64,000 nucleotides of DNA from Acidimicrobiales bacterium (GTDB lineage Bacteria > Actinomycetota > Acidimicrobiia > Acidimicrobiales > Palsa-688): contig DASUWA010000024.1 in NCBI GenBank assembly GCA_036378675.1, positions 29,365 to 93,364 of the forward strand, in the 5' to 3' direction. The translations under genes were made by a program, and so were the position numbers. Position 1 is the stretch's first letter. Each line of letters begins with the position of its first letter. Shown piece after piece: positions 30,367 through 54,041 of the stretch. The notes under the pieces were generated by a model. The model did not search any database and was not told the DNA's origin. It was given only the letters and a program-made list of their open reading frames with translations.

Positions 30367-31725
30367 GTGCGAACCCTCCTGAGTGGCTTTGACTGCCTTG
30401 CCTGCTTCGACGACGCCGGCACGGAGCTCGAGGGGGCGGACGTCCTCATAGACGGGTCGACCATTGCCGACGTCGGCATAGACCTCTCGACCGAAGTCGA
30501 TCGGCGGGTCGACTGCCGTGGGCTTGTCGGCCTGCCCGGGCTCATCAACGCCCATCAGCACCTGTATCAGGGCGCATGCCGTGCCGTCCCCGAGCTGGAG
30601 CGAGCACCGATCGAACCGTGGCTGGCAGGGCTGGGGCGGCGGGTCAAAGGCTGGTACCAGGCCGGCGCCTTCGGCCCTGACGTGGTCGAGGCGGTGGCTG
30701 CGGCAGTGCTCACCGAGTCGCTGATGGGCGGGGTGACGACCGTCGCGGACCAGCACTACTTTTTCCCCGCTGGGCCCTCCCTTCCCTACGTGGAAGCCAC
30801 TGTCGCCGCGGCCCGGGAAGTGGGGGTGCGCCTCCACGCCTGCCGAGGGACGATCACCCTCGGCCCGGACCTCGACTTGGTCCAGACGGTGGATGAGGTG
30901 GTCTCTCACAGTTTGAGCCTGATCGACGCGTTCCATGACCCCAATCCCGGCTCCCGGGTCAGGATTGCCTTGGCGCCCTGCGGTGTGCACGTCGATGAGC
31001 CGGAGCTGTTCGACCTGCTCGCAGAGGTCGCGGCCGACCACGACGCCGTCAGGCTGCACACTCACCTCTACGAGGAGATCGATGCAACGGTGTGCGGGGA
31101 GCGCTACGGGTGCACCCCGTGGCGGCTGCTTGCCGAGCACGGCTGGGCTCAGCCTCGGACGTGGCTGGCACACGTCGTCGATCCGCCCGAGTCCGAGATA
31201 TCTGAGATGGCCGCGGCCGGCGTCGGCGTGGTTCACCTTCCCGCTCCCGACCTGCGCATGGGGTGGGGTGTCGCCCCGCTACGTCAGTTCTTCGATGCCG
31301 GCATCACGGTGGGGTTCGGAACCACTGGCTCGGCCTCGAACGACGGAGCCAACCTCCTCGGCGACCTGCGCCTGGCCGCCCTGGTGCATCGGGCCGCCCA
31401 CCGGGCTGTGCCGGAGCGGTGGCCGTCGGCAAGAGAACTGCTCGCCGCCGCCACCCGTGGCTCGGCGGCATGCCTGGGACGCGACGACCTGGGGGTGATC
31501 GCCCCCGGCCGGCAGGCGGATCTCGCGGCGTGGGACCTGCGAACGGTCGACCGGGTCGGCGTTCACGACCCGCTCTCGGGGCTGCTGTTGACCGGGCTGA
31601 GCAGCCGTGCCGCGCTCGTAATGGTCGCGGGTGAAGTCGTCGTCGAGGACGGCCAGCCGGTGCACCTTGACCCCGATGCCATCGCAGCCCGGGCCCGGGG
31701 GTTGCTCAGAACCCGATCTCCTTGA
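30367..31725 (+). CDS. Amidohydrolase / TRZ-ATZ family deaminase with altered metal-site Asp
   Basis: 452 residues from a GTG. The barrel motifs are present: LPGLINAHQHLYQG (His63, His65), LHTHLYEE (His231, His233) and WLAHVVDPPE (His269), and the end has LGVIAPGRQADLAAWDL. Where the family has G-x-D-G with the metal-binding Asp, this protein reads FGTTGSASND (Thr320). It most resembles hydroxyatrazine / 8-oxoguanine deaminase relatives, so deamination or dechlorination of a heteroaromatic ring is the family reaction. Activity is uncertain because of the Asp loss. It converges with, and overlaps by 20 bases, the Rieske gene. Confidence 0.82.
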   Translation: MRTLLSGFDCLACFDDAGTELEGADVLIDGSTIADVGIDLSTEVDRRVDCRGLVGLPGLINAHQHLYQGACRAVPELERAPIEPWLAGLGRRVKGWYQAGAFGPDVVEAVAAAVLTESLMGGVTTVADQHYFFPAGPSLPYVEATVAAAREVGVRLHACRGTITLGPDLDLVQTVDEVVSHSLSLIDAFHDPNPGSRVRIALAPCGVHVDEPELFDLLAEVAADHDAVRLHTHLYEEIDATVCGERYGCTPWRLLAEHGWAQPRTWLAHVVDPPESEISEMAAAGVGVVHLPAPDLRMGWGVAPLRQFFDAGITVGFGTTGSASNDGANLLGDLRLAALVHRAAHRAVPERWPSARELLAAATRGSAACLGRDDLGVIAPGRQADLAAWDLRTVDRVGVHDPLSGLLLTGLSSRAALVMVAGEVVVEDGQPVHLDPDAIAARARGLLRTRSP

Positions 31726-32704
31726 GTCGCTTTCGGTAGGCGACGGCGAACCGGTCGAAGGACAGATGCAGCTCCTCGAGCGGGTCGAGTGGAAGCCGGA
31801 CCGGACGCTGGCTTTCGACTATGGCTCGATCGGGGTTCCAGATGCGGGCCTCGATCGCTTCGTACGCCTCCTCGTCCACCTCGATGTCGAGGGGGAACGT
31901 GCACACCCAGAACACCCGGGTCTCGGTCGCGGAAAGAGGCGAGGAGGCCATGCACAACGACGTGCCAGGACCGCTGGCGTTACCCAACGACACCGAGAAC
32001 GGCAGGTCGATCTCGTACTCGAAGACCATCGGCGCCGGCGGCCGGCTCCCCGTCGGGTCGCACGCCTCATAGGGGAAGTCGAACGACAGCCGCCAACCGT
32101 CGTCGCTCACCTCGACGGCTAAGGGAGCGACAACCTCCAGGGCGGGATTGCCGAATGTATCGACGTGGAGGACGGAAAAGTGGGCCACGTCGCAGAAGTT
32201 CTCGACCTGACGGAAGGCCTGCGCCTTCCAGTCGTACACCTCCCCGACGTGCACTTGGTGTCGGCCGTCGGTGGCTGCCGCCCACGTGGGCCGAGGCCGC
32301 AGTTCGTCCGCCTCGTCAACCAGGCAGGCCCAGACCAAGCCGGCGTGCTCGGACACCCGGTAGGCTCGGACATCGGCTTGCCGTGGAATGGGGCGGGACG
32401 GAGCGAGTTGGGGAACGAGTGTGCATCTCCCGGAGCCGTCGAACCGCCAACCGTGGTATGGGCAGCGCAGGCAACCGTCGATGGTCACGTCACCAAGCGC
32501 GAGGCTCGTTCCGCGGTGGGGGCAGATGCCGTCGACGACCTGCGCCCGGCCGTCGCCGTCCCGCCACACGGCCAAAGGACGGTCGAGCAGCCGGGTCCCG
32601 GTCACTTGGCCCGAGCGGACGTCGGCGCTTCGGGCCACCGGATGCCAGAAGCAGGCGGCGAGCTGCTCGAAGACTTGCACTGCGCCCGATCCGCAGACCG
32701 ACAC
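31706..32704 (-). CDS. Rieske non-heme iron oxygenase alpha subunit, HpxD/Ndm-like (1 of 3)
   Basis: 332 residues. The Rieske [2Fe-2S] site is Cys61-x-His63 and Cys81-x2-His84 (CPHRGTSL, RCPYHGW). The mononuclear iron site is in VENFCDVAHFSVLH (bridging Asp172, His175, His180). The C-terminal helix SFDRFAVAYRKRLKEIGF and the preceding AIVESQRPVRLPLD are like purine N-demethylases of the NdmA group and related HpxD. It would hydroxylate or N-demethylate a small heterocycle using electrons from a reductase that is not in the window. It is the last gene of the importer operon; the GTG at 32704 follows the permease stop by five bases. Confidence 0.85.
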   Translation of the reverse strand: MSVCGSGAVQVFEQLAACFWHPVARSADVRSGQVTGTRLLDRPLAVWRDGDGRAQVVDGICPHRGTSLALGDVTIDGCLRCPYHGWRFDGSGRCTLVPQLAPSRPIPRQADVRAYRVSEHAGLVWACLVDEADELRPRPTWAAATDGRHQVHVGEVYDWKAQAFRQVENFCDVAHFSVLHVDTFGNPALEVVAPLAVEVSDDGWRLSFDFPYEACDPTGSRPPAPMVFEYEIDLPFSVSLGNASGPGTSLCMASSPLSATETRVFWVCTFPLDIEVDEEAYEAIEARIWNPDRAIVESQRPVRLPLDPLEELHLSFDRFAVAYRKRLKEIGF

Positions 32705-32709
32705 CGATG

Positions 32710-33579
32710 TCAGCGTGACTGGGGGGGCCCGAATCGGGCCAGCACGATCGTCTCCAGAGCGCCGATCAGGCGATAGAGGATGAACGAGTAGACGGTCACC
32801 AAGGCGACTCGTGACCACAGTCCGTTGTAATCGGAGAGCGCCCCGACTTGCAGGATCCGGTAGCCCAGGCCCTTGCCAGTCGCGAGCCACTCGGCGAGTA
32901 GCGCGCCGATGAGGGCGAGGGGCGCCGCGATGCGCATCGATGCCATGAGGGCCGGCAGGGATGTCGGGATCTGGACTCGACGCAGTGTCTCCGCGCGAGA
33001 CGCCCCGTAGGCGTGGCAGAGGTCCAGCGACTCCTGGGGCGTCCGGCGCAGCGCCAAGTTGACGTTGACGAGAGTCGGGAAGAAGGTGACGATCCCCGCG
33101 ATTACGGCGACGGTCTTGAGGTTCCGGCCGAATAGCAGGACAATCAACGGCGTCATGGCCATCAGCGGGACTGACCGCAGGACCATCGCGATCGGCATGA
33201 CGGTGCGCTCGAACGGGCGTGACAGGTTGAAGGCGACGGCGCACCCGACCGCCGCGACGGTACCCACGCCGAGCCCGATGAACGCGTCGCGGAGCGTCGT
33301 CGCCGATTCGTGCCACACCGCCGTGCGGTTCGCCCCCGCGGATTGCGACGTGACGAGGTAGCGCCAGACGTCCGCGGGTGTCTTGCCGATGAAGTGGTTG
33401 ACATGGAACAGCTTCAGGAACAGCAGCCAGGCTCCGAGCACGACGGCGATCGAAACAAGCGTGCCCAGCGTCCGGCGAACGAGCCGGACAGCGAGACCTG
33501 ACTCCCGCTCGGCGCCCAACCGCGCTGACCTCGCCCATTCGATGTCGATGGTGAGCGGTGGCGTCTCTGTCGACGTCAT
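32710..33579 (-). CDS. ABC transporter permease (SsuC/ThiX-type), second copy
   Basis: 289 residues, six predicted spans. The BPD_transp_1 domain has the EAA loop HAYGASRAETLRRVQIPTSLPALMAS. It belongs to the nitrate/sulfonate/taurine/thiamine-precursor (NMT1/THI5) importer class. Its ATG overlaps the TGA of the other permease (ATGA), so the two are coupled and probably form a heterodimer. The frame is open further upstream inside the other permease, but those codons are out-of-frame shadows of it. Confidence 0.9.
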   Translation of the reverse strand: MTSTETPPLTIDIEWARSARLGAERESGLAVRLVRRTLGTLVSIAVVLGAWLLFLKLFHVNHFIGKTPADVWRYLVTSQSAGANRTAVWHESATTLRDAFIGLGVGTVAAVGCAVAFNLSRPFERTVMPIAMVLRSVPLMAMTPLIVLLFGRNLKTVAVIAGIVTFFPTLVNVNLALRRTPQESLDLCHAYGASRAETLRRVQIPTSLPALMASMRIAAPLALIGALLAEWLATGKGLGYRILQVGALSDYNGLWSRVALVTVYSFILYRLIGALETIVLARFGPPQSR

Positions 33580-35218: not shown

Positions 35219-36337
35219 CTACACGCTCACCGGAGATGTCTTGAGTTGGGGTGACTCCTGGTACAGCTCCGTCAGCACCGACATGTCGAACAGCTTGTCC
35301 TTCGTGATCGTGATTCCGCCGAGGGCCAACGTCGAGATGCACTTGTCGACCAACTCGGGGGTGATGGTGAGGAGGCCGTTGGCCTGTGTATCAGCGGTGA
35401 GGATGAGCTTGTTCTGGGCCTTGGACTCCAGGGTCTGCTCGGCCTCCTCCAGGCCGAGGGTGGAGCCGTACTTGGTGACCGCCAGGTGGGGGCCGGCGGC
35501 CGGGTCGGCGAGGCTATCGTGCCACCCCATGATCTCGGCCCGCATGAACGCCTTGAGCTTCTCCCGATTGGCCCCGGTCAGGGCACTCTTCTCGACCATG
35601 TAGCTCTCAGCAACCAGCGGGTAGTTGAAGTCGTTCAACAGGAAGGTGTAGGTGTCGAAGCCCTTGACCTTCAGAAGGTTCGGCTCGTTCGTGATGTAGG
35701 AGAACCACCCGTCGACGGTGTGCGTCGTCAGAGGCGTCGGATCGAACTGCACCGGGACCTCGTTGATCTTGGACGGATCCAGGTTGTTGGCCTTGAGGAA
35801 CGCTTTCCAGACCGCCTCGTTGGTGGACTGGACGCCGATTTTCTTCCCGATCATGTCCTGCGGCGTCTTGATCGGACTGGAAGCCAACGACATGATGGCG
35901 AACGGGTTTTTCTGGTACTGCGCTCCGATGATGACCAGGTCGGCCCCTTGATTGATGGCCGCAGCCGTGATGTCCGGCGACGACAGTCCGGCGAACGCCT
36001 TCCCCGACGCAACCACGGCGTCCTGGGTAACGTTCGGGCCGCCGGGGATGATATTGACATGTGCAAAGCCCTGGCTGGTGTAGTACCCGCGGCTGTCCGC
36101 CAGATACTCGCCGGAGAACTCGTCGTTGAGGATCCACGACACTTGGAACCCGATGGTGCCATACGTCCCGGGGGCTACGGTGCCGCCCGCGCCGCCCGTG
36201 GTGGTGGTGGGACCGGTACTGCTTTTGGATGAGCTGCTACATGCCTCCAACAGCGCCGACAGGCCACCGACTGTGGCCAGGCCCACCGTTGCACCCCCCA
36301 TCCGGATGAAGCCCCTCCGCCCGATGGTGTTGGTCAC
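35219..36337 (-). CDS. ABC transporter substrate-binding protein (NMT1/THI5-like lipoprotein)
   Basis: 372 residues from a GTG with a GGGAGGC box. The N-terminus has a twin-Arg motif ([10 protein letters not shown]), a hydrophobic stretch and a lipobox-like Cys (SALLEAC), so it is probably exported and lipid-anchored. The mature part is an NMT1/THI5-type periplasmic-binding fold, with [47 protein letters not shown] and [22 protein letters not shown] (each seen in segments). Relatives bind pyrimidine thiamine precursors, riboflavin, taurine or nucleobase-like ligands. First gene of the importer-Rieske operon. Confidence 0.88.
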
Positions 36338-36631: not shown

Positions 36632-38029
36632 ATGACTCACCACACCAAGACTCCCGACTCCGATCTGCTGATCACCGGGGCCGAGATGGTGGTGACCATG
36701 GACGACAGCCGGAGCGAGATCAGGTCCGGGTGGGTAGCGACGACGGGCGGGTTGATCTCCCACATCGGCGGCCCAGGAGACGCCCCACCGGTCGCTCGCG
36801 AGACCCTCGACGCCGGTGGCGGTCTGGTCACGCCAGGGCTGATCAACACCCACCACCACATGTACCAGAACCTCACTCGTGCGTACGCTCCGGCGGCGAA
36901 CGTATCGCTGTTCGAATGGCTCACCACCCTTTACCCGCTGTGGGCGTCCCTGGACGAAGAGGCCTCCTATCTCTCGGCTTTCGTGGGGCTGGCGGAACTG
37001 GCGCTGGGCGGCTGCACGACCTCGACCGATCACCTGTACGTCCACCCACGACACGGCGGCGACCTGATCAGCGCGGAGATAGAGGCAGCCATCGAACTGG
37101 GTATGCGGTTCCACCCGACTCGGGGTTCGATGAGCCTCTCCGCCAAGGACGGCGGCCTGCCACCGGATTCCGTCGTACAGGACGACGATGAGATCCTGGC
37201 GGACAGCGAGCGCCTGGTGGCCAAGCATCACGACCCGTCGTGGGGAGCGATGGTCCGGCTCGCGCTGGCCCCTTGTTCACCTTTCTCCGTGACGGCCGAG
37301 CTGATGGTTCGCACAGCAGAGCTCGCCGAACGGCTGGATGTCCGGCTCCACACCCACCTCGCCGAGGATCCCGACGAGGACCGATTCGCAGAGCAGACAC
37401 TCGGCAGGCGGACCGTGGAGCACTTCGAGGAGGTGGGTTGGCTCAGCTCCCGATCATGGGTGGCTCACTGCATCTATCCCAACCAGGCGGAGGTGGCCCG
37501 GCTTGGGAGGGCTGGGGTAGGAGTGGCTCACTGCCCGTCGTCGAACATGATGATCGGCGGCGGAGGGCTGGCGCCCATCGCCGAACTCCTCGAGGCCGGA
37601 TCGCCGGTAGGCATCGGCTGCGACGGGTCGGCGTCCACCGACCACGCCTCCTTGTGGCTCGAGACCAAATGTGCGATGCAGCAGGGACGACTGCGCGGTG
37701 GCCCGACCGCCACGAGCGCGCGCGACGCGCTGGCGCTCGCCACCCGGGGCTCGGCCGCATGTCTCGGACGCGACGGTGAGATCGGTCAGCTGAGTGTCGG
37801 AGCGGCAGCCGACCTCGTCGTGTGGCCAATCGACGGCCTGTCGTTTGCCGGTGCCCTCACCGACCCGGTCGAAGCATGGCTGCGGTGCGGTCCGGTCAGC
37901 GCCCGCCACACCGTCGTGGCGGGCCGGCCGGTCGTCCGGGAGGGCGAACTGGTCAGACCGGGCGTGCACGACATCGTCCGTCGCCACCGAGATGTCGCGG
38001 CCCGGATGCAGCAGCTCGCACTCGGATGA
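36632..38029 (+). CDS. 8-oxoguanine deaminase
   Basis: 465 residues. It deaminates 8-oxoguanine to uric acid in the cytoplasm. The barrel sites are TPGLINTHHHMYQN, LHTHLAED, WVAHCIYPN, GVAHCPSSNMMI and VGIGCDGSASTDHASLW with the metal Asp intact. The segments FEWLTTLYPLWASLDEEA, LGGCTTSTDHLYVHP and RFHPTRGSMSLSAKDGGLPP are specific to characterised 8-oxoguanine deaminases of the cog0402 group. It opens a plus-strand operon coupled by ATGA/GTGA overlaps to the three xanthine dehydrogenase subunit genes, which would supply urate by a second route. Confidence 0.9.
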   Translation: MTHHTKTPDSDLLITGAEMVVTMDDSRSEIRSGWVATTGGLISHIGGPGDAPPVARETLDAGGGLVTPGLINTHHHMYQNLTRAYAPAANVSLFEWLTTLYPLWASLDEEASYLSAFVGLAELALGGCTTSTDHLYVHPRHGGDLISAEIEAAIELGMRFHPTRGSMSLSAKDGGLPPDSVVQDDDEILADSERLVAKHHDPSWGAMVRLALAPCSPFSVTAELMVRTAELAERLDVRLHTHLAEDPDEDRFAEQTLGRRTVEHFEEVGWLSSRSWVAHCIYPNQAEVARLGRAGVGVAHCPSSNMMIGGGGLAPIAELLEAGSPVGIGCDGSASTDHASLWLETKCAMQQGRLRGGPTATSARDALALATRGSAACLGRDGEIGQLSVGAAADLVVWPIDGLSFAGALTDPVEAWLRCGPVSARHTVVAGRPVVREGELVRPGVHDIVRRHRDVAARMQQLALG

Positions 38030-38904
38030 AATTCGCCCCGTTCGACTACGTGAAGCCGGCGGATCTGGCCGCTGCTATCGGGTGCCTGGAGGGCAACGAC
38101 GACGCGAAGATACTGGCCGGCGGTCAGAGCCTTCTGCCGTTGATGGCCCTGCGGCTGGCCCGGCCGACGCTGCTGGTGGACATCGGGTGCCTCTCCTTGG
38201 ATGGGATCTCGACAGAATCGGCTGGAGGTGACGCCTTCCTCCGTCTAGGGGCGCTGGTGCGGCACGAGCGCCTGCTCCGCGATCCGTTCGTAAAGGTGAA
38301 CGCTCCACTGCTCGCCGAGGCCGCGGCCTATGTGGGTCATCCGGCCATAAGGACCCTGGGCTCCCTCGGCGGCTCCATTGCGCACGCCGATCCCGCCGCG
38401 GAGCTTCCGGCGGCCTTAGTCGCGTTGGGCGGCTCGGTGGAGGCGGTCGGGCCGAGTGGACAAAGGGTGGTCCCGTGCGAATCGCTGTTCGAAGGGTTCT
38501 TCACCACCGGGCTGGAGTCGTCAGAGGTCATCACCGCCATCCGGATTCCCATCAGCCCGGTGCCCGAGAGCGCGTCATGGTGTGAGTGGGCGCCCCGGCA
38601 CGGCGACTTCGCCGAGGTGGGGATCGGGGTCTCGCTGACCTTCAGTGAAGACGGACGGTGCACCACGGTTAAGGCCGCGGCATGTGGGGTGGGGGCCACA
38701 CCGGTAGGCCTGACCGACACGCTCGCCCCGGTGCTCGTCGGCCGGTGGGGCGACGATCCCGAGGCGCTTCGCGAAACGGCCCGCGTCGTTGCCGGTGTCC
38801 TTGCGCACCCGGACAAGTCCGACCTGGGCGGCCTGCTCTGTGCCCGCGCCGTGAAGCGGGCGTACGAATCACGCTCGGTCGGGGCTCCGGGACCGGGGTC
38901 GTGA
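38026..38904 (+). CDS. Xanthine dehydrogenase-type FAD-binding subunit
   Basis: 292 residues. CO-dehydrogenase/xanthine-dehydrogenase medium subunit: KILAGGQSLLPLMALRLARP (FAD pyrophosphate loop), LVDIGCLSLDGI, and HPAIRTLGSLGGSIAHADPAAELPA, which has Ser in place of the usual Gly after TLG. It passes electrons from the iron-sulfur subunit to NAD+ or another acceptor. The start ATG overlaps the deaminase stop (ATGA), and its own stop overlaps the next GTG. Confidence 0.92.
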   Translation: MKFAPFDYVKPADLAAAIGCLEGNDDAKILAGGQSLLPLMALRLARPTLLVDIGCLSLDGISTESAGGDAFLRLGALVRHERLLRDPFVKVNAPLLAEAAAYVGHPAIRTLGSLGGSIAHADPAAELPAALVALGGSVEAVGPSGQRVVPCESLFEGFFTTGLESSEVITAIRIPISPVPESASWCEWAPRHGDFAEVGIGVSLTFSEDGRCTTVKAAACGVGATPVGLTDTLAPVLVGRWGDDPEALRETARVVAGVLAHPDKSDLGGLLCARAVKRAYESRSVGAPGPGS

Positions 38905-45161: not shown

Positions 45162-46362
45162 CGTGCTCCACTGCCTTGCCCCAAGTCCGCCCGGCCGAGG
45201 CGAAGCTCATCGGTCGGGCGGACGGCACCCATGTGCCCGCCCGGACGCAGCCCACCGGCACGACCGCCGCCGGGGCCATCACGGTCTCGACGCCGTCGGA
45301 GACCGGGACCGGCCCATCGTCGTTCAATCGGACAGCGCTGAGTTCGGCCGGGCGGCCGGGCGTGATCGCCCCGAGCTCGTCCTTCCGGTCGATGGCCCGG
45401 GCCGCGTTGGTCGTCCCGATCTCCACCACCTCGGCCATGCTGAGTCCCAGGGCGAGGAGCTTGGTCATGTTCTCCAGGTACGAGAAGACCGGGCCGCCTA
45501 CGTTGAAGGCGTTCAGGTCGGTGGAGGCGGAGAACGGGCGGAAGCCCTGGTCCATCAGGCGCCGGGCCTCGTTGAAGCGGAAGTCCGTGGCGGAATGCCC
45601 CATGTCCAGCAGCACTCCGCGCTCCACCGCGTCGACCAGCTCAGGCACCGCCCTGCCGGTGCGGTCCACCATCCCGCCGGCGCCACCAAACGCGTGAGTG
45701 ACGATGTCACCCGGGCGCAACGCCCGGAGCAGCGCGGCCGGCGTGATGGCGGGGGTGTGGGGGAATCGGCCCAGGTGGACCATCACCGGCTTGTCCCCGC
45801 CCACCCGCTGGGCCGCGGCCAGGAAGGGGCTGTGCTCGGGGTCGCCCACGTGGCAGGCCCTCACCTTCAGGCCGACGATGACATCGGAGTTCCGTTCCAA
45901 GCAGGCGGCGAGGGCCTCTTCGTCCAGGTTACGGAGGTCGTTGGCGATCTCGAGCTTGTGGCAGATGAAATCTCCGGTAGCCAGGTAGAGCTGGTTCGGA
46001 TCCACGAATGCGAGGACCCGGGTGCGAACCATGGGATGGTCGATGATCGCCCGCCGGCAGACCTCGAACGTGGCGACACCGCTCGTTCCCCCGTCGACGA
46101 CCACCGGCACACCCACGTCGACTCCTATGGCGTCCGGCTCGACGCAGAAATCCCCCAAACCGGCCATGACGTGGGCGTGCAGGTCCACCAGCGCAGGGGT
46201 CAGGATGCACCCGGGCAGGTCGATGACCTCGCATCCCGGCGGAGCTACAAGACCGGTTCCCCGTCCGGCCACCACCCCCCGCTGGACCAGCACGTCGGCG
46301 ACCTGGTCGAACCCCGATGAAGGGTCGATGACCCTTGCCCCTTTCAACAGCAACGTCGGCAC
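45154..46362 (-). CDS. Amidohydrolase/deacetylase-family metallohydrolase (dihydroorotase-like)
   Basis: 402 residues from a GTG. ALVDLHAHVMAGLGDF gives the HxH pair. VGLKVRACHVGDPEH carries a Lys that is likely carboxylated, with VMVHLGRFP and DIVTHAFGGAGG as the next His ligands and PFSASTDLNAF with the Asp. This pattern fits the Atu3266/EF0837 group of amidohydrolases, some of which act as deacetylases or esterases. It opens the four-gene minus operon with the Rieske, deaminase and second amidohydrolase genes. A ring-opening or deacylation role on a purine product is inferred. Confidence 0.85.
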   Translation of the reverse strand: MPTLLLKGARVIDPSSGFDQVADVLVQRGVVAGRGTGLVAPPGCEVIDLPGCILTPALVDLHAHVMAGLGDFCVEPDAIGVDVGVPVVVDGGTSGVATFEVCRRAIIDHPMVRTRVLAFVDPNQLYLATGDFICHKLEIANDLRNLDEEALAACLERNSDVIVGLKVRACHVGDPEHSPFLAAAQRVGGDKPVMVHLGRFPHTPAITPAALLRALRPGDIVTHAFGGAGGMVDRTGRAVPELVDAVERGVLLDMGHSATDFRFNEARRLMDQGFRPFSASTDLNAFNVGGPVFSYLENMTKLLALGLSMAEVVEIGTTNAARAIDRKDELGAITPGRPAELSAVRLNDDGPVPVSDGVETVMAPAAVVPVGCVRAGTWVPSARPMSFASAGRTWGKAVEHDG

Positions 46363-46477: not shown

Positions 46478-47314
46478 ATGGACGTGTTCGGTGTCGACGA
46501 CATTGCCGGGCTGGTGGACTCCTACAAGGCGCAAGGCTTCGCGGTGCTTCGCGGCGCTATCGGCGACGACGCGTTGTCGGATCTCGAACACGAGTGCTGC
46601 GAGGCTCAGGAGCAGCTGCTCGCGGGAGAGTTGGATGACCGCTACGGCACGCTGGAGCTGGTCGAGGAGGGGGCGGCGGATAAGGCGGAGGCCTTCGCCA
46701 ACTACGTACTGCGAATCACCGAGCTCTCGCCCGCGGCGCGTGCGATAACCCGGTCGGCACCGGTCATGGCGGTGATCCGGGCGCTGCACGGTGACCGATG
46801 CTGGTCCAGCGACGAGGACCGTTTCGGCTTCGTCTACCAGGACGCCCGCCCCTCGGAGCTGAGCAGCTACAAACGGATCGGCTGGCACAGCGACTGGCAG
46901 TCTTCGCCGCACCTGAGCATGTGGCCCTCCACCGCGGTGACGGTCAACATCGACGAGACCGGCCCGCCGAACGGCTTTCTGCGAGCCGTCCCGGGCAGCC
47001 ACCTGTGGGCCACGCCCGCGCCCTACGAGAACGTCAACGGGGCGTTGGTGCCTCCTGGCTCAGCCCCCGCCGGCGGATACACCGACCAGCCCCCTCCGTT
47101 CCCCATGCCACTCCGGTTCGAGAAGATCCCGGGCGAGGTGGCGGTGTACGCCGAGAGAGGGGACATCTTCTTCCACGACTGCTACCTGTGGCACTCGGCG
47201 GCCATGGCCACTGAGCCTGACGCCCGGCGCCGCCACGTCCGGGGCAGCTGGTACGCCGGTGACAAGCCCGAGCGGTACGGCGAGCAGGACTTCGTGAAAA
47301 ACGCCGCTCGCTGA
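46478..47314 (+). CDS. Phytanoyl-CoA dioxygenase (PhyH)-family Fe(II)/2-oxoglutarate oxygenase
   Basis: 278 residues. The iron triad is visible as GWHSDWQS (H-x-D) and FFHDCYLWHSAA (distal His), with the 2-oxoglutarate Arg probably in RRRHVRGSWYAGD. PNGFLRAVPGSHLW is the typical PhyH strand. Family members hydroxylate CoA esters, halogenate or oxidise diverse small molecules. It lies eight bases before hpxO and so probably shares its transcript. An oxidative step on a purine-derived substrate, for instance N-dealkylation, is inference. Confidence 0.85.
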   Translation: MDVFGVDDIAGLVDSYKAQGFAVLRGAIGDDALSDLEHECCEAQEQLLAGELDDRYGTLELVEEGAADKAEAFANYVLRITELSPAARAITRSAPVMAVIRALHGDRCWSSDEDRFGFVYQDARPSELSSYKRIGWHSDWQSSPHLSMWPSTAVTVNIDETGPPNGFLRAVPGSHLWATPAPYENVNGALVPPGSAPAGGYTDQPPPFPMPLRFEKIPGEVAVYAERGDIFFHDCYLWHSAAMATEPDARRRHVRGSWYAGDKPERYGEQDFVKNAAR

Positions 47315-47321: not shown

Positions 47322-48488
47322 TTGCGGCGCCTCCGGATCGGGATAGTCGGGGGAGGGCTCGGCGGCCTCACCGCGGCCCTGGCGCTGCGGGCCACGGGCC
47401 AGGAGGTGGTCGTGTTCGAACAGGCGGCGGTGTTCCGCCCGGTAGGAGCTGGCATCTCTCTGTGGCCGAACGGGGTCAAGGTCCTGTCTCAACTCGGGTT
47501 GGGACCGCAGGTGGCGGCCGCCGCCGGCCGGATGGACCGCATGGCGTACGCCTCTTCCGACGGGCGAACCCTCACCGATTTCTCACTCGAACCGCTCTAC
47601 GCCACGGTCGGTGAGAGGGCCCGGCCGCTGGCGCGCTCCGCCCTACAGGACCTCCTGATCGATGCGGTCGGGGAGGAGCACATCCACGTCGGCCGGCGGT
47701 GCACCGGCGCCGAGTCGGATGACGACACGGCGGTGGCCCACTTCTCCGACGGCTACGACTTCGAGGGGGATGTCGTCGTGGGCGCCGACGGCACCCACTC
47801 GCTGCTCCGCACCTTGGTAGTCGGCCGGCCGGTGGAGCGGTGCTACGTCGGCTACGTCAACTTCAACACCATCCTCCCGGCGGCCTCCGCCCCCACCGCT
47901 CCCGGCACGTGGGTCACGTGGGTCGGTGAGGGGCGCCGGGCGTCGGTCATGCCGTGCGGCGAGGCCGCCGTCTACTGTTTCTTCGACATCCCGATGAGCC
48001 TTCGGGACGGAGTCGATCCGAAGCTATCGCCGGCCGAGGAGTTGGAGCAGGCGTTCGGAGGGTGGGCGCCACCCGTTCGCTCCGTCATGGACGCCATCGA
48101 CCATTCGAAGGTCAACCGAGTGCTCATCCACGACCTCCCGGCCGTGCCCGCTTGGTTCCGAGACCGGATGGTGCTTCTCGGTGACGCCGCCCACTCGATG
48201 GCACCGGATTTGGGGCAGGGCGGGTGCCAGGCGATGGAAGACGCCCTCGTGCTGGCGCGCCACCTCGCTTCTACCGACCGCTCCGTGACGGACGCTCTCC
48301 GCCGTTACCAGGAGGAGCGGGCGCCTCGAACCCGGGAGATCGTACGGCGCGCCCGCAAGCGGTCGGACCTGACCCATGCGGTCGACAGGGAGGCGACCGA
48401 GGGGTGGTACCGCTCGCTGGACGGGGACACGGGCGAGCAGATCATCGCCGGCCTGGTCGAGTCGGTGGTCACCGGGCCCTGCGGCTGA
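47322..48488 (+). CDS. hpxO: FAD-dependent urate hydroxylase HpxO
   Basis: 388 residues from a TTG with GAGGG upstream. Converts urate with NADH and O2 to 5-hydroxyisourate. IGIVGGGLGGLTAALAL is the FAD fold; PVGAGISLWPNGVKVLSQLGLG, RMDRMAY, VGYVNFN, MVLLGDAAHSMAPDLGQGGCQAMEDA and the C-terminal TEGWYRSL with TGEQIIAGL match Klebsiella HpxO closely. This explains the lack of a uricase gene in the cluster. Its product feeds the HIUase and OHCU decarboxylase encoded on the opposite strand. Confidence 0.93.
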   Translation: MRRLRIGIVGGGLGGLTAALALRATGQEVVVFEQAAVFRPVGAGISLWPNGVKVLSQLGLGPQVAAAAGRMDRMAYASSDGRTLTDFSLEPLYATVGERARPLARSALQDLLIDAVGEEHIHVGRRCTGAESDDDTAVAHFSDGYDFEGDVVVGADGTHSLLRTLVVGRPVERCYVGYVNFNTILPAASAPTAPGTWVTWVGEGRRASVMPCGEAAVYCFFDIPMSLRDGVDPKLSPAEELEQAFGGWAPPVRSVMDAIDHSKVNRVLIHDLPAVPAWFRDRMVLLGDAAHSMAPDLGQGGCQAMEDALVLARHLASTDRSVTDALRRYQEERAPRTREIVRRARKRSDLTHAVDREATEGWYRSLDGDTGEQIIAGLVESVVTGPCG

Positions 48489-48492
48489 CCGG

Positions 48493-49404
48493 TCAGCCCG
48501 GGTACGGGTGGGTGGCGACCCAGTGGCGGGCGATCTCGTCCCGGCGGGCGAACCAGACCGATTCGTGGCCGAGCGCGTAGTCGAGGAAGCGGGCCAGCGC
48601 CGCGCTCCTACCTGGCCGGCCGGTAAGCCGGGTGTGCAGCCCGATCGACATCATCTTGGGAACAGTGGCGCCCTCGGCGTAGAGCACGTCGAAGGAATCC
48701 TTGAGGTACGAGTAGAAATCGTTCCCGGAGGAGAAGCCGGCGGGACTGACAAAACGCACGTCGTTGACGTCGAGTGTGTAGGGGACGATCAGGTGGGGGC
48801 GGCCGGCCTCGACCGTCCAGTACGGCAGATCGTCGGCATAAGAGTCCGAGTCGTAGAGGAACCCGCCTGCCTCGATCACCAGTCGCCGGGTGTTCGGCCC
48901 GCACCGGCCGGTGTACCACCCGACCGGTCGGTCGCCGGTCGCGTTCTCGATGGCCCGCACGGCCAACGCGATGTGCCGTCGTTCCGTCGCCTCGTCCACC
49001 GATCGGTAGTCGATCCACCGATATCCGTGGGAGCAGATCTCATGTCCCATGTCGGCCATCCGGCTCACCACTCCGGGGGACCGCTCGACGGCCATGCCCA
49101 CCGCGAACATGGTGGCCTTCACGCCGACGTCGGAGAGGATGCGCAGAAGCCTCCAGACGCCGGCTCGGCTGCCGTACTCGAACATGGACTCGACGTTCGG
49201 GTGGCGCATGCCGGGCCAGGGCTCCGCTCCTATCACGTCCTGGAAGGCCGCTTCGGAGGCGGCGTCTCCGTGCAGGACGTTGTTCTCGCCTCCCTCCTCC
49301 CAGTTGACCACCACATTGACGGCCAGGCGCGCCCCCTCTGGCCACTGGGCGTCCGGGGGATGCTCGCCGTAGCCGGCCAGGTCCCTGGGGTACCCGTCAG
49401 GCAT
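48493..49404 (-). CDS. puuE: Allantoinase PuuE (polysaccharide deacetylase family)
   Basis: 303 residues. Hydrolyses (S)-allantoin to allantoate without the classical amidohydrolase allantoinase. YPRDLAGYGEHPPDAQWP, NWEEGGENNVLHGDAASEAAF, MRHPNVESMFEYGSRAGVWR and EICSHGYRWIDYR are PuuE-specific segments. The ATG at 49404 overlaps the end of the allantoate amidohydrolase gene by eight bases and was chosen for that and because family homology begins there. Last gene of the six-gene ureide operon. Confidence 0.93.
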   Translation of the reverse strand: MPDGYPRDLAGYGEHPPDAQWPEGARLAVNVVVNWEEGGENNVLHGDAASEAAFQDVIGAEPWPGMRHPNVESMFEYGSRAGVWRLLRILSDVGVKATMFAVGMAVERSPGVVSRMADMGHEICSHGYRWIDYRSVDEATERRHIALAVRAIENATGDRPVGWYTGRCGPNTRRLVIEAGGFLYDSDSYADDLPYWTVEAGRPHLIVPYTLDVNDVRFVSPAGFSSGNDFYSYLKDSFDVLYAEGATVPKMMSIGLHTRLTGRPGRSAALARFLDYALGHESVWFARRDEIARHWVATHPYPG

Positions 49405-50614
49405 CGATCCCGCCGTCCGCTTCCACCACGGTGCGCAGCAGCACCCGGGCGCCGTCGACCAGCGACGCGTCCGGTGTGGATTCACTGGAGTGGTGACTGA
49501 CCCCGCCGATGCTAGGGACGAATATCAACGCCACCGGGCCGAGACCAGCCAGGATGGCGCAGTCGTGTCCGGCCCCACTCTGCAGCCGTCGGGACGGGAG
49601 ACCTAGCGCCGAGGCGCTCTCCTCGATCAGATCCTGCAGCACGGGGTCCATCGGGATCGCGTCCGTGCGCGCCTGGGCCACGACGTCCACCTCGACTCGG
49701 CGGGCCTCCCGCACCTCGGCGCACGCCTGCTCCAACCCGGCCAGCGCCGCCTCGAGCCTGGAATTGTCCCCGGAGCGCAGGTCGAAGGTCATCTCCACCC
49801 GGCCCGGGACGACGTTCGCCACCCCCGGCTCGACCTCCAGTCGGCCGACGGTGGCCACGTCACAGCGTCCCTCCCCGGCCAGGCGGCAGATGGCGTGGAT
49901 CAGGTCCGCCGCAGCAACGAGCGCGTCGCGGCGCAGCAACATCGGTGTCGTCCCGGCGTGGTTCGCCGCGCCGGTCACGACGATGCTGCCCCGCTGCTGG
50001 CCGGTCACTGCCGTGACCACCCCGATCGGCACCCGCTCGTGGTCGAGGACGGGTCCCTGCTCAACATGGAGCTCGACCGTTGCCGCCACGTGCTTCCACG
50101 CAGCCGCGTCCAGTCCCGCAGGATCGCAGCCGGCCCGGACGAGGATGGGCCGCAGCTCATCCACCTCCGGCCCGACGAGACGGCCGGCCGCGGCCCGGCT
50201 CCCTGTGTACGGCGGGGCCACCACGCCCTCTTCGTTGACGAAGGCCACGGCCCGCACCGGGTGCCGTAACCGGACGCCGGCATCGTGCAGCGCGGCGAGC
50301 ACCTCCCATGCGGCCGCGACTCCGTACGCCCCGTCGAGGCGGCCACTTCCCGGCACGGTGTCCAGATGGCTCCCCGTCACCAGCGGCGGCGCCGAAGGCA
50401 CATCTCCCGCCCGCTCGGCCACCACGTTGCCCACCGCGTCGACCGCGACGCGGGCACCGGCCGCCTCCGCCCATTCCGTGAGCATGCGGGCCGCCTGGCG
50501 CCACTCTTCCGACCAGGCCAGGCGGGTCACGCCCGGCCCCGGCGTCGAGCTGGCACTGGCCAGCTGCTCGATGCGGCCGAGCAGCCGCACCGCGTCTGCC
50601 TCCGCTGTCAGCAC
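49397..50614 (-). CDS. allC: Allantoate amidohydrolase / N-carbamoyl hydrolase (M20, AllC/HyuC type)
   Basis: 405 residues from a GTG. Dinuclear metal motifs: GSHLDTVPGSGRLDGAYGV, AFVNEEGVVAPPYTGS, VELHVEQGPVLD, SGAGHDCAILA and GGVSHHSSE. In the ureide context it most likely converts allantoate to ureidoglycine/ureidoglycolate with release of ammonia. M20 relatives act on N-carbamoyl amino acids, so the assignment comes from the neighbours. It overlaps the upstream gene by seven bases and puuE by eight. Confidence 0.88.
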   Translation of the reverse strand: MLTAEADAVRLLGRIEQLASASSTPGPGVTRLAWSEEWRQAARMLTEWAEAAGARVAVDAVGNVVAERAGDVPSAPPLVTGSHLDTVPGSGRLDGAYGVAAAWEVLAALHDAGVRLRHPVRAVAFVNEEGVVAPPYTGSRAAAGRLVGPEVDELRPILVRAGCDPAGLDAAAWKHVAATVELHVEQGPVLDHERVPIGVVTAVTGQQRGSIVVTGAANHAGTTPMLLRRDALVAAADLIHAICRLAGEGRCDVATVGRLEVEPGVANVVPGRVEMTFDLRSGDNSRLEAALAGLEQACAEVREARRVEVDVVAQARTDAIPMDPVLQDLIEESASALGLPSRRLQSGAGHDCAILAGLGPVALIFVPSIGGVSHHSSESTPDASLVDGARVLLRTVVEADGGIDA

Positions 50615-51030
50615 CCGGGTCGGAGTACCGAATCGAGCCGTTGGTTGGAGGCCAGGAACCGCTGGTAGGCGCGGAAGCCGCCCAGCTCGGAGATGTCCAC
50701 CACCTGGTCCCCCGGTTTCAGCCGCTCGGGCTGCAGCAGCATGGCGTGGACCTGCTCCCCGTCGATCAAGGTGATGGTGCCGAGTTCCAGTTCGTGCGGC
50801 TCAGCCGGCAGGAGTTGGTTCCGAAGCACCGGGTCCGGCATGTCGTACAGTTCGCCTTCGATGCAACGGCCGCCCGAACCCACCGGCAGCAGGCCCGGGA
50901 ATTCGTCGCGTACGGCGAAGAAGCGGTAGCCCGCCGTGGTGCGCGCCGGCCCGAGGAACGTCGAACCGGTGTGGCACGCATAGTCCTTCTGCCCGGACAT
51001 CGCCGTGCCGTTGAGGAACATCAGAGTCAC
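50608..51030 (-). CDS. Stand-alone allophanate-hydrolase C-terminal-domain protein
   Basis: 140 residues from a GTG. LMFLNGTAMSGQKDY, GPARTTAGYRFFAVRDEFPGLLP (seen in parts), GGRCIEGELYDMPDP, LGTITLIDGEQVHAMLL and DISELGGFRAYQRFL reproduce the C-terminal domain of allophanate hydrolase (AtzF), a gamma-glutamylcyclotransferase-like fold that decarboxylates N-carboxycarbamate. Here the amidase half is absent from this gene. The overlaps with the OHCU decarboxylase (GTGA) and AllC genes tie it to ureide breakdown. Its actual reaction is unknown. Confidence 0.82.
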   Translation of the reverse strand: MTLMFLNGTAMSGQKDYACHTGSTFLGPARTTAGYRFFAVRDEFPGLLPVGSGGRCIEGELYDMPDPVLRNQLLPAEPHELELGTITLIDGEQVHAMLLQPERLKPGDQVVDISELGGFRAYQRFLASNQRLDSVLRPGC

Positions 51031-51861: not shown

Positions 51862-51865
51862 TCCC

Positions 51866-52951
51866 CTACGGCCGCGGCCGGTCGTACGCGGCCACCATGT
51901 CGGCCAGCACGCTGCGCCAGGCCAGGCTGAGACGGTCGGCTCGCGTGTGAAGCTCCAACGTGCGGTCCAGGGGAAGGGCCTCGTGGTCGAATCGCTCCAG
52001 TATCGCCAGATCTTCTCTGAGTATCTGGTCCTCCTCGGCGATGAACTCCTTGAGCGCGGCCGAATCCGATCCCAGGTCGTTGCGGGCGAGCAGCTTGTAG
52101 ACCCGTGACTGGCCCGGGCGTTCCGGTGTGCAGCTGAAGAGGATGGCGATCACCGCCCCGGTGTCCGGGAAATCCAGGCGGAGGCGGACGGTCAGTGAAG
52201 CCGATCCCTTCTTGGTGAGCAGTTGCCGCTGCACGGCGCCGCCCTCCCGGTACCAGGTTTGGAAGACGGTCTCCACCGTCCATCCCTCACGGCGGATCCC
52301 GTCGTCGAGCACGCGAGCCGCGTCCGGCACACCGAAGGACGCGGCGTGGACAAAGGGGAAGTGGGCGGCGTCGAGGAAGTTGTCCACCAGGAGGGCGGCG
52401 CCGGCACGAGTCCGGACCACCTCGCTGAAGCCGGTGACGAACTCCGGATCGTCCCACTCCGGGAACTCCAAAAGCTCGCACGCCGGCTCGGCCGGGGCCA
52501 TCCACACCAGACCGTGGCGCTCTTGCAGTCCCCAGGGGATCTCCACCGCGGCCCGGGCCGGTGGAGCGGTTTCGGTCGCCGGGATCGTGGTGCAGCGGCC
52601 GTCGGAGGCGAAGGTCCATCCGTGGTAGCCGCACTGGATCCCATCGCCTTTGACCCTGCCCGCCGAGAGTGGCGCCAGTCGGTGGGGGCAGCGGTCCGCC
52701 CACCCGGCGAGCCGGCCGTTCTCCGTTCGCACCAGGCACCACGGTCGTCCCAGCAGCCACACCTGGACCGGTTCGTCGCCCAGCTCGCTGGTCTGCAGCA
52801 CAGCGTGCCAGGCGTGCTCGAGCGCGCTGGTGCTGTTGTGAACTACCGACCCCTCGAGCTCCCGCACCGCGACATTCTGTCCGACCACGCGGATCTGGTG
52901 GACCTCCACCCGGGCAGTGTTCACCGGGTCGTAATAGAGCCGGGGAGTCAT
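51866..52951 (-). CDS. Rieske oxygenase alpha subunit (3 of 3), first gene of the ureide operon
   Basis: 361 residues. Rieske ligands Cys88, His90, Cys107 and His110 (DRCPHRLAPLS, IQCGYHGW); mononuclear site VDNFLDAAHFPFVH (Asp194, His197, His202), which has Asp190 where the other two have Glu. It has an N-terminal extension of about 27 residues compared with the other two. The C-terminal LHTRADRLSLAWRSVLADMV is of the same group. It would insert oxygen into, or demethylate, an upstream substrate of the urate route. Its ATG is 61 bases from the divergent deaminase start at 53013. Confidence 0.85.
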   Translation of the reverse strand: MTPRLYYDPVNTARVEVHQIRVVGQNVAVRELEGSVVHNSTSALEHAWHAVLQTSELGDEPVQVWLLGRPWCLVRTENGRLAGWADRCPHRLAPLSAGRVKGDGIQCGYHGWTFASDGRCTTIPATETAPPARAAVEIPWGLQERHGLVWMAPAEPACELLEFPEWDDPEFVTGFSEVVRTRAGAALLVDNFLDAAHFPFVHAASFGVPDAARVLDDGIRREGWTVETVFQTWYREGGAVQRQLLTKKGSASLTVRLRLDFPDTGAVIAILFSCTPERPGQSRVYKLLARNDLGSDSAALKEFIAEEDQILREDLAILERFDHEALPLDRTLELHTRADRLSLAWRSVLADMVAAYDRPRP

Positions 52952-53012
52952 GGCCGCTGACCTCCTCGTACGCTCGGGGCCACGGTCACCTAGCCGAGAG
53001 GTGGTTTCAAAA

Positions 53013-54041
53013 GTGGACCTGAAGTCGTACATCGCCGGCCTGCCCAAGTGTGAGCTACACCTCCACCTCGAGGGCACTCTCGAACCGGGGCTCAAGCTCG
53101 AGCTGGCCGAGCGCAACGGTATCCCTCTGGCGCAAACCACCGTCGCCGAGGTGGAGGCGACCTACGAATTCGACTCACTGTCGAGCTTTCTCGCGGTCTA
53201 CTACCCGGCCATGCAGGTGTTGGTCACGGCCCAGGACTTCCGCGACCTCGCCTTCGCCTACCTGGCGAAGGCGGCGTCACAGGGCGTGCGGCACGTCGAG
53301 ATGTTCTTCGACCCCCAGGCTCACACCGGCCGGGGTATCCCGTTCCCCACGGTGATCAACGGCTACCGCCAGGCTGTCGTGGCCGCCCGGGCCGAGTTCA
53401 GCATCTCAGCGGAGCTCATTATGTGCTTCTTGCGCGACCTCTCCCCCGAGTACGCCATGGCCACCCTGATGGAGTCTCTTTCCTACAAGGAGTGGATCAT
53501 CGGCGTCGGCCTGGACTCGGATGAACGTGACAACCCTCCCTCCAAATTCGCCGCCGTCTTCGAACGGGCCCGGCGGGAGGGATTTCAGCTCACCATGCAC
53601 TGTGACATCGACCAAGTGGGCAGCATCGAACACATCCGGCAGGCGGTCGAGGACATAGGGGTGGACCGCGTCGACCACGGCACGAACATCGTCGAGTCAC
53701 CCGCGCTGGTCGAACAGGTGAAAAAGCGCGGCATCGGGCTGACCTGTTGCCCCATTTCGAACTCATTCGTGACGGCGGACATGAAGGCCACGGAGATCGT
53801 CACCTTGCTACACGACGGCGTTAGGGTGACCGTGAACTCGGACGATCCGGCCTACTTCCGCAGCTACGTGGCCGAGAATTTCACGGCCATCGCGGCCGAG
53901 GCGCACCTTTCTGCCGTGGACGTGACCCGCCTCGCCCGCAACGCCTTCGAGATCGCCTGGATACCTACCTCGAGGCGTGACGCGCTCCTGTCTGAGCTGG
54001 ACGCGTACGCCGCCGCCCACGGGGTGACCGCGACCAACTGA
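53013..54041 (+). CDS. Adenosine/adenine-deaminase-family protein with HCDID in place of HAGE
   Basis: 342 residues from a GTG preceded by GAGAGG. LPKCELHLHLEGTLEP (zinc HxH), EMFFDPQAHTGRGIPF, IIGVGLDSDERDNPPSKF, RVDHGTNIVE, LTCCPISNSFVT and VTVNSDDPAYF (zinc Asp) follow the fungal/bacterial adenine deaminase pattern. The catalytic H-x-G-E motif, however, reads MHCDID (196-200), losing the usual general-acid Glu, though Asp198 and Asp200 lie beside the position. A distinct substrate, or an altered mechanism using Asp, is likely. An earlier GTG at 53001 is possible. Confidence 0.83.
   Translation: MDLKSYIAGLPKCELHLHLEGTLEPGLKLELAERNGIPLAQTTVAEVEATYEFDSLSSFLAVYYPAMQVLVTAQDFRDLAFAYLAKAASQGVRHVEMFFDPQAHTGRGIPFPTVINGYRQAVVAARAEFSISAELIMCFLRDLSPEYAMATLMESLSYKEWIIGVGLDSDERDNPPSKFAAVFERARREGFQLTMHCDIDQVGSIEHIRQAVEDIGVDRVDHGTNIVESPALVEQVKKRGIGLTCCPISNSFVTADMKATEIVTLLHDGVRVTVNSDDPAYFRSYVAENFTAIAAEAHLSAVDVTRLARNAFEIAWIPTSRRDALLSELDAYAAAHGVTATN

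What the first reader, a model, noticed from the sequence alone, without database searches (positions are those of the whole stretch)
30367..54041. Purine-catabolism supercluster built around three Rieske oxygenases
About 24 kb carry an importer, three Rieske alpha subunits, four amidohydrolases, two ADA-family proteins, a three-subunit xanthine dehydrogenase, HpxO, HIUase, OHCU decarboxylase, PuuE, AllC and an AtzF-C domain. Almost every junction inside an operon is an overlap or a gap of a few bases. Each Rieske gene sits in a different operon (transport, deamination, ureide). The route from purine to allantoate is textbook; the combination with several oxygenases and deaminases suggests modified purines (N-methylated, oxidised or alkylated) as nitrogen source.
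Basis: partly seen in the sequence, partly recalled or inferred. Interest (0 to 1): 0.85.

Follow-up and report, generated by a model that had tools for sequence, protein, structure and literature searches.

The report
Modified-purine eating gene block
A 24-kb block of 23 genes in a bacterium related to Aquihabitans combines families of a purine-to-allantoate breakdown route with a likely purine importer and three different Rieske oxygenases, one of them in the caffeine-demethylase clade, and is predicted to let the cell use N-methylated and other modified purines as a nitrogen source.

Summary
In detail: 23 tightly packed genes lie in 30367-54041. G027, same family, keeps R3-HIU-OHCU-AH_C-AllC-PuuE / PhyH-HpxO / AH4-R2-ADA1 / AH2. 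Rieske 2 falls in one clade with caffeine demethylases NdmA/NdmB (100/100, ~40% identity) and 30 of 30 rows of its group have NdmB-type Gln282/Leu286. Of 19 hand-picked Acidimicrobiales-type R2 loci 18 carry other genes of the block; 0 of 13 control Rieske loci do, 0 of 8 proteobacterial R2 loci (6 of these have a purine-type permease instead) and 1 of 12 remoter R2-like loci. G018 and G153 have the trunk with no Rieske gene beside it, so the Rieske genes look like accessories that widen the diet. No NdmD-type reductase was found in the genome. Rieske 1 leans to Klebsiella HpxD (86/81, unsure); Rieske 3 is a separate clade; both mostly have Glu at 282 (15 of 17, 23 of 23); their substrates are unknown. 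Precedents: Ndm caffeine demethylation, Klebsiella hpxDE, and the proteobacterial xanthine-riboswitch gene set. Verdict: a real, conserved, new variant of known purine oxidation systems; substrates untested.

The parts
30367..31725 (+). AH1: 8-oxoguanine-deaminase-like amidohydrolase that lacks the beta-8 Asp (GTTGS instead of GCDGS); converges on Rieske 1
31706..32680 (-). R1: Rieske oxygenase alpha subunit, own clade, nearest reference HpxD (37%)
32710..33579 (-). ABC permease 1
   Evidence: PF00528
33576..34376 (-). ABC permease 2
   Evidence: PF00528
34380..35216 (-). ABC ATPase (start predicted)
   Evidence: (PF00005)
35219..36337 (-). NMT1/THI5-like substrate-binding protein, predicted purine importer
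   Evidence: PF09084; association; precedent PMC7373994
36632..38029 (+). AH2: 8-oxoguanine deaminase
   Evidence: NF006055 586.3 bits, cut-off 532
38026..38904 (+). XdhB-like FAD subunit
38901..39380 (+). XdhC-like 2Fe-2S subunit
39377..41782 (+). XdhA-like molybdenum subunit, predicted xanthine dehydrogenase
   Evidence: 63% relative near HpxO in L130
41798..43126 (-). AH3: TRZ/ATZ-SAH-deaminase-type amidohydrolase; beside R1 relatives in L090 and L135
43129..44109 (-). ADA1: adenosine/adenine-deaminase family, active-site motifs intact
44097..45161 (-). R2: Rieske oxygenase of the NdmA/NdmB clade, predicted N-demethylase
45154..46362 (-). AH4: binuclear-type amidohydrolase (PRK09237-like), a frequent immediate upstream neighbour of R2
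46478..47314 (+).
47322..48488 (+). HpxO-type FAD urate hydroxylase
48493..49404 (-). PuuE allantoinase
   Evidence: TIGR03212 472.3 bits, cut-off 424.6
49397..50614 (-). AllC-like M20 allantoate amidohydrolase
50608..51030 (-). lone AH_C (allophanate hydrolase C-terminal) domain protein
   Evidence: PF21986
51027..51530 (-). OHCU decarboxylase
   Evidence: PF09349
51568..51861 (-). short HIUase ending YLGV instead of YRGS
51866..52951 (-). R3: Rieske oxygenase alpha subunit, own clade
53013..54041 (+). ADA2: adenine-deaminase-like (nearest PDB 3ou8/3pan) with HCDID in place of the HAGE motif

Best explanation
This is a conserved purine-breakdown supercluster in which a predicted xanthine-to-urate-to-allantoate trunk is likely fed by an NMT1-type importer, several deaminases and three accessory Rieske oxygenases, of which Rieske 2 belongs to the NdmA/NdmB clade and likely removes N-methyl groups from purines. 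Predicted flow: the ABC importer brings purine bases in (inferred). R2, and probably R1 and R3 at other positions or on aminopurines, oxidise or demethylate them with electrons from an unlinked ferredoxin and Reductase_C-type ferredoxin reductase (inferred; no NdmD found in the genome). ADA1, ADA2, AH2 and AH3 deaminate to hypoxanthine, xanthine or urate (families shown, activity inferred). XdhABC makes urate; HpxO, HIUase, OHCU decarboxylase, PuuE and AllC take it to allantoate and on to ammonia (families shown, XDH by synteny). The trunk occurs elsewhere without Rieske genes beside it (shown), so the oxygenases extend the substrate range rather than perform a trunk step (inferred).
For: R2 clade with NdmA/NdmB: SH-aLRT 100 with 118 rows, bootstrap/SH-aLRT 100/100 with 52 rows. 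PDB: NdmA 8e-74 (6icp) and 1.4e-72 (6ick), NdmB 4.4e-66. Gln282/Leu286, the pair by which the 6icp sequence differs from 6ick, in 30 of 30 R2 rows, the window's included, and 7 of 7 alphaproteobacterial rows. Rieske and iron ligands intact in R1, R2, R3. 18 of 19 R2 loci with other block genes, 0 of 13 controls. 6 of 8 proteobacterial R2 loci carry one permease family near R2, typed as Xan_ur_permease in L042. Trunk with no Rieske match nearby in L130 and in L131/L161. HpxO keeps the Arg that is changed in 3rp8. Two Reductase_C proteins in the genome.
Against: No NdmD or VanB-type reductase was found (assembly 97% complete) and no formaldehyde-detoxifying gene is among the 23; the mycothiol formaldehyde dehydrogenase model gives 25 matches in the genome, none over its cut-off. 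R2 is only ~40% identical to NdmA/NdmB, enough for a shift of substrate. The 8 proteobacterial R2 loci hold none of the other block genes, and of 12 remoter R2-like loci outside the NdmA/NdmB clade only 1 does (L064). AH4, a frequent immediate neighbour of R2, has no clear job in N-demethylation. L095, L096 and L097, remote R3, R3b and R1 relatives, have no purine genes near. No expression or activity data were seen.
Confidence: 0.6

Rival explanations
1. The Rieske enzymes are ring hydroxylases of plain purines (HpxD-like: hypoxanthine to xanthine), an oxygen-dependent substitute for xanthine dehydrogenase.
For: R1 is nearest HpxD among references (37%, 180 bits) and groups with it at 86/81; the protein I take for HpxD (unannotated record, named by its place) lies beside HpxO in the Klebsiella locus L107; PMC7373994 passages describe hpxDE as hypoxanthine/xanthine oxidation.
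Against: A molybdenum hydroxylase sits in the same block and goes with HpxO in L130 and L161, where no Rieske match was found. HpxD has Asn/Phe at the two pocket positions; of 17 R1-clade rows 15 have Glu at 282 and 13 Trp at 286. The HpxD placement failed the star threshold and was not recovered.
Confidence: 0.15
2. Methylxanthines are oxidised first at C-8 (CBB1-type caffeine dehydrogenase and TmuM), and HpxO, HIUase and the rest act on methylated urates.
For: Same families as cdhABC, tmuM, tmuH, tmuD (PMC4408171 passages); the HIUase is odd (YLGV).
Against: HpxO aligns to 3rp6 over nearly its whole length with the substrate Arg, Tyr and Asp kept (the roles of Tyr and Asp are recalled). The odd HIUase also occurs in G018 and G153, with no Rieske match beside it.
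Confidence: 0.08
3. R1 and R3 (and partly R2) act on aminopurines such as methylated or otherwise modified guanine and adenine from RNA turnover, with the deaminases as the next step.
For: Five deaminase-family genes in the block (one, AH1, without its catalytic Asp); nucleoside hydrolase PF01156 near R2 and R3b in L034; Glu at 282 in R1 (15 of 17), R3 (23 of 23) and R3b (13 of 13), where the xanthine enzymes have Asn/Gln.
Against: Glu282 also occurs in R3b-clade rows whose neighbourhood is not purine-related or was not read widely (L096, L016, L019, L022), so it may only mark a lineage; in the R1 clade P0209 has Gln and L097 Phe. No structure with ligand.
Confidence: 0.3
4. The Rieske genes are unrelated aromatic or steroid oxygenases that happen to lie in a purine island.
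For: NCBIfam gives only methylsterol, aromatic and glycine-betaine oxygenases and NirD for them, all far below cut-off.
Against: 18 of 19 against 0 of 13 for R2; same order in G027; R2 overlaps AH4 and ADA1 by 8 and 13 bases.
Confidence: 0.05

Closest known systems
NdmA/NdmB caffeine N-demethylases of Pseudomonas putida CBB5
   Same: R2 lies in their clade, same cofactor ligands, NdmB-type pocket pair; predicted to feed xanthine into a urate route.
   Different: ~40% identity; no NdmD reductase found; sits with deaminases, AH4 and the purine trunk; Acidimicrobiales-type host instead of Proteobacteria.
Klebsiella hpx purine cluster with the Rieske oxygenase HpxD (hpxDE)
   Same: A Rieske gene near HpxO, HIUase and OHCU decarboxylase (L107; identified there by likeness and place, the record has no annotation).
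   Different: Three Rieske genes of three clades, plus a molybdenum hydroxylase and many deaminases.
Genes of the proteobacterial NMT1-motif xanthine riboswitch (PMC7373994)
   Same: Same mix: Rieske and 2OG oxygenases, NMT1-like and tauA ABC importer genes, 8-hydroxyguanine/guanine-deaminase-like amidohydrolases (passages).
   Different: No Rfam match over gathering score in the window; there pcbC-like oxygenases are among the main genes, here PhyH; the urate-to-allantoate trunk is in the same block here.
Caffeine C-8 oxidation cluster of Pseudomonas sp. CBB1 (cdhABC, tmuM, tmuH, tmuD)
   Same: Same enzyme families in the trunk (passages).
   Different: HpxO here looks like a urate enzyme, and Rieske demethylase relatives are present.

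Membership tests
NdmA/NdmB N-demethylase family (R2) | falls in one supported clade with NdmA and NdmB | tested here: met
   100 and 100/100
NdmA/NdmB N-demethylase family (R2) | Rieske C-x-H / C-x2-H, bridging Asp, 2-His-1-Asp iron site | tested here: met
NdmA/NdmB N-demethylase family (R2) | NdmB- or NdmA-type residues at positions 282/286 | tested here: met
   Gln/Leu in 30 of 30 rows
NdmA/NdmB N-demethylase family (R2) | partner reductase NdmD | tested here: not met
   7 of 8 NdmD matches are Rieske pieces, the eighth a weak FNR-like one
NdmA/NdmB N-demethylase family (R2) | N-demethylation of methylxanthines | not testable with these tools
   needs enzyme assay
NdmCDE N7-demethylase complex | NdmD with its extra Rieske domain | tested here: not met
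NdmCDE N7-demethylase complex | NdmC (no Rieske domain) and NdmE (GST-like) | not tested
   not searched by themselves; none among the 23 genes
HpxD hypoxanthine oxygenase (R1) | clade with HpxD | tested here: inconclusive
   86/81; not recovered
HpxO urate hydroxylase | NF033623 cut-off 500 bits | tested here: not met
   484.6 bits, just below; PDB 3rp6 2e-99, so it probably works like HpxO
8-oxoguanine deaminase | NF006055 cut-off 532 bits | tested here: met
   AH2 586.3; AH1 347.7 does not reach it
PuuE allantoinase | TIGR03212 cut-off 424.6 | tested here: met
   472.3
AllC allantoate deiminase | TIGR03176 cut-off 597.75 | tested here: not met
   236.1; but the subfamily model TIGR01879 is met, 342.1 over 204
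HIUase | PF00576 cut-off and C-terminal YRGS | tested here: inconclusive
   46.6 bits over 25.3 but YLGV at the end; TIGR02962 46.7 under 87.45
Xanthine dehydrogenase | NCBIfam XDH subunit cut-offs | tested here: not met
   XdhA 374.3 under 780, XdhB 87.7 under 310, XdhC 162.3 under 217; assigned by synteny only
Fe(II)/2OG oxygenase (PhyH) | HxD...H iron triad and fold | tested here: met
   H137, D139, H233 and H239 in 16 of 16; Foldseek prob 1.00, E 2.9e-14, model pLDDT 82

The most novel reading that the evidence does not exclude
Three separately recruited Rieske families, together with a PhyH oxygenase, form a peripheral oxidation front for modified nucleobases (N-methylated or otherwise altered guanine, adenine and xanthine, as from RNA and DNA turnover): R2 clears xanthine-type bases, R1 and R3, with a Glu in the pocket, clear aminopurines, and dedicated deaminases pass the products to the urate trunk. 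This would be a bacterial route for eating modified nucleobases.
Probability: 0.3. Interest if true: 0.72.

Novelty: new variant of a known kind. Interest (0 to 1): 0.55.

Why it matters
It carries the caffeine-demethylase clade from Proteobacteria into Acidimicrobiales-type bacteria (a group that, from general knowledge, is little studied in culture), in a setting not made for caffeine alone. It names two further Rieske clades and a PhyH family as candidate purine oxygenases. If true, it shows how bacteria may recycle nitrogen from modified nucleobases, and offers new regiospecific demethylases.

Tried and rejected
Rejected: chance grouping (control loci); C-8-first caffeine route (HpxO residues); Rieske genes as trunk enzymes (trunk without them beside it in L130 and L131/L161); riboswitch control (Rfam, no match over gathering score). 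A scan of 36200-54100 gave 0 sigma-70 promoters (0.8 in shuffles) and 5 terminators (5.2 in shuffles), so nothing. Weakened: the Glu282 argument. A fold of PhyH without alignment was useless (pLDDT 34); with 16 sequences it gave 82, but the 50 best fold matches shown name no purine enzyme. Literature: ten searches; the two aimed at Actinobacteria and Acidimicrobiia found 0 papers; the library lacks most subscription papers, among them the NdmA structure paper.

Rows dropped and picked: one search printed only matches over 60 bits. One search left out Rieske hits under 700 bases or 230 residues and rows sharing over 80% of 5-letter words (124 to 118). One search used identity thresholds that I set (27% for XdhA, 60% for AH2 and AH3, 38% for R3 and so on). 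I chose its 19 R2 loci by hand: 17 loci of the 37 (one, L030, is titled Acidobacteriaceae), three of them swapped for longer copies of the same contigs, plus L092 and L093. L057 and L091 come from one genome and are probably two halves of one gene, so 18 of 19 may be 17 of 18. L032 is the one without a hit, though it has an R3b. The 13 controls were hand-picked too, and three of them (L095, L096, L097) are remote members of the R3, R3b and R1 clades. The 8 proteobacterial loci (0 of 8) and 12 remoter R2-like loci (1 of 12) are the rest of that table.
Full report
What is there. The window is bases 29365-93364 of contig C24 of a 4.1-Mb assembly, 97% complete. The genome seems to lie in the same order as Aquihabitans: the contig of G291, listed as same order, has the length of the Aquihabitans sp. 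G128 record, 4,938,963, and many named relatives are titled Acidimicrobiales. Five same-strand runs are seen: SBP-ATPase-two permeases-R1 (minus); AH2-XdhB-XdhC-XdhA (plus); AH4-R2-ADA1-AH3 (minus); PhyH-HpxO (plus); R3-HIU-OHCU-AH_C-AllC-PuuE (minus); AH1 and ADA2 stand alone on plus. Of the 16 junctions within runs 14 are overlaps of 4-13 or gaps of 2-7 bases (starts are predicted).

Conservation. A scan with R2 relatives in one genome each of 84,980 species gave 37 loci. G006 keeps AH2-ADA1-R2-AH4-PhyH-HpxO and the trunk, but its R2 match lies in two frames and its R3 match is only about 126 codons long. Of 19 hand-picked Acidimicrobiales-type R2 loci, 18 hold at least one further gene of the block: R3 or R3b 12, ADA1 11, NMT1 binding protein 10, AH4 9, AH2 6, XdhA-like 6, PhyH 5 (R3 and ABC genes were not counted towards the 18). 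Of 13 control Rieske loci, five from the window's own genome, none does. The other rows of the same table: 0 of 8 proteobacterial R2 loci, and 1 of 12 remoter R2-like loci (L064, with HpxO, AllC, PuuE, OHCU). Close R2 relatives are rare: 3 of 396 genomes drawn from the phylum at E up to 1e-60, own genome included. In the protein searches five R2-R3 pairs and one R1-R2 pair share a longest contig of the same length (compared), which suggests but does not prove one contig.

Rieske 2. In a 118-row tree a 43-row branch with support 100 holds six proteobacterial NdmA/NdmB-type proteins, seven alphaproteobacterial (mostly Rhodospirillaceae) proteins and 30 R2 proteins; a 52-row tree with bootstraps gives 100/100. 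The reference proteins come from plasmids of Pseudomonas putida, Paraburkholderia caffeinilytica (tea soil), Klebsiella and Komagataeibacter (kombucha); I call them NdmA or NdmB from their likeness to the PDB sequences and their neighbours. The two NdmA crystal sequences differ at Asn282 and Phe286, which are Gln and Leu in 6icp. R2 has Gln and Leu in 30 of 30 rows, as the NdmB side does. That this change moves activity towards N3 is recalled; PMC9830774 (passages) says that a mutant NdmA4 demethylates at N3, but the passages give no residues. In 6 of 8 proteobacterial loci (one, L063, titled Gammaproteobacteria) R2 relatives have one permease family nearby, whose member in L042 is Xan_ur_permease; the Pseudomonas and Paraburkholderia clusters also have a nucleobase:cation symporter.

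Rieske 1 and 3. R1 is nearest HpxD (37%, 180 bits) before R2 (36%, 163) and NdmA (30%, 132). The tree puts it with HpxD at 86/81, not. Its relatives sit with AH1, AH3 and AH2 (L090) or AH3 (L135, 39% identity). R3 forms a clade of its own, sister to R3b proteins that often follow R2 directly. Among genomes of the order, R3 relatives at E up to 1e-70 were found in 6 besides the window's: 4 have purine-type neighbours (L091-L094), 2 not (L095, L096); R1 relatives in 2: L090 yes, L097 no. At position 282 Glu is found in 15 of 17 R1-clade, 23 of 23 R3-clade and 13 of 13 R3b-clade rows. That Glu could pair with the amino and ring NH of guanine-type bases is inference, and R3b-clade rows with other or little-known neighbours have it too.

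The trunk is complete without oxygenases beside it. G018 has XdhABC-HpxO-AH2 / HIU-OHCU ... AH_C-AllC-PuuE in 15 kb with no Rieske match in the stretch (L130); G153 has HpxO-PuuE-AllC-AH_C-OHCU-HIU (L131) and AH2-ABC-SBP-XdhBCA-PhyH-HpxO (L161), again with none. So R1-R3 look like accessories, and PhyH may be closer to the trunk than they are. HpxO aligns over nearly its whole length with 3rp6 and keeps the Arg that is Gln in 3rp8, and the Tyr and Asp recalled as urate contacts.

Electron supply. No NdmD-like reductase was found; of 8 NdmD matches 7 are Rieske domains and one is a 30% piece at C23. Two Reductase_C ferredoxin reductases exist. R2 must therefore use another donor than its Pseudomonas kin, if it is active.

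PhyH. HxD...H and Arg are kept in 16 of 16 relatives, and the model (pLDDT 82) matches Fe/2OG oxygenases such as proline hydroxylase H11 and PHYHD1. It occurs in 15 of 298 genomes of the order, 6 of 13 stretches around relatives hold other genes of the block (L154, L155, L156, L157, L161, L165) and 7 do not.

What is known. PMC4408171 (passages) reviews NdmABCDE and the C-8 route. PMC7373994 (passages) reports xanthine riboswitches in Proteobacteria in front of Rieske and 2OG oxygenases, NMT1-like and tauA importer genes, and 8-hydroxyguanine/guanine-deaminase-like genes, and describes hpxDE as hypoxanthine oxidation. The kind of system is thus known; what differs here is its form in an Acidimicrobiales-type genome, three Rieske clades in one block with the whole trunk, and the missing Ndm reductase.

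Verdict. Observation confirmed; interpretation partly supported; new variant of a known kind; interest 0.55.

Noticed in passing
30367-31725 (AH1) and L090:7146-8441: AH1 and its relative (2 of 2) have GTTGS where the deaminase family has GCDGS, so the beta-8 catalytic Asp is missing; it may be a non-hydrolytic or regulatory paralogue.
   Followed up: partly
51568-51861; L098, L111, L112, L114: A short HIUase ending YLGV or YLGA instead of YRGS in G000, G006, G018, G153 and G027; HIUases were found in only 6 of 298 genomes of the order, of which 2 (G291, G167) end YRGS.
   Followed up: partly
53013-54041 (ADA2) and L046:3349: HCDID with a two-residue insertion in place of the HAGE motif of adenine deaminases, in 2 of 2 close relatives.
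   Followed up: partly
50608-51030: The lone AH_C protein is among the most conserved (74-80% in L098, L130, L131, L134) and lies beside AllC in all 4; it may do an unassigned ureide step after AllC.
   Followed up: no
L101, L134 (G006): The R2 match lies in two frames and the R3 match is only about 126 codons long, while the trunk genes match at full length or nearly so; assembly error or decay, not examined.
   Followed up: no
L031, L033, L036, L038: A Bac_luciferase flavin oxygenase, a second XdhA-like subunit and an amidohydrolase are clustered near R2 in four loci; the luciferase-like gene also in L032.
   Followed up: partly
   Followed up: partly
L069 (Klebsiella pneumoniae plasmid A, MS6671): A plasmid typed as conjugative carries an NdmB-like protein (70%), a TIM-barrel protein, a short oxygenase in the place of NdmC, a Rieske protein in the place of NdmD, a GST and a 2OG oxygenase between insertion sequences.
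   Followed up: no
L029 / G027: The record is titled Acidobacteriota, but a contig of the same length belongs to a genome placed in the same family as the window's.
   Followed up: no
25964-29052: Left flank: GH5 cellulase, GNAT acetyltransferase and MarR-type regulator ORFs, not part of the block.
   Followed up: no
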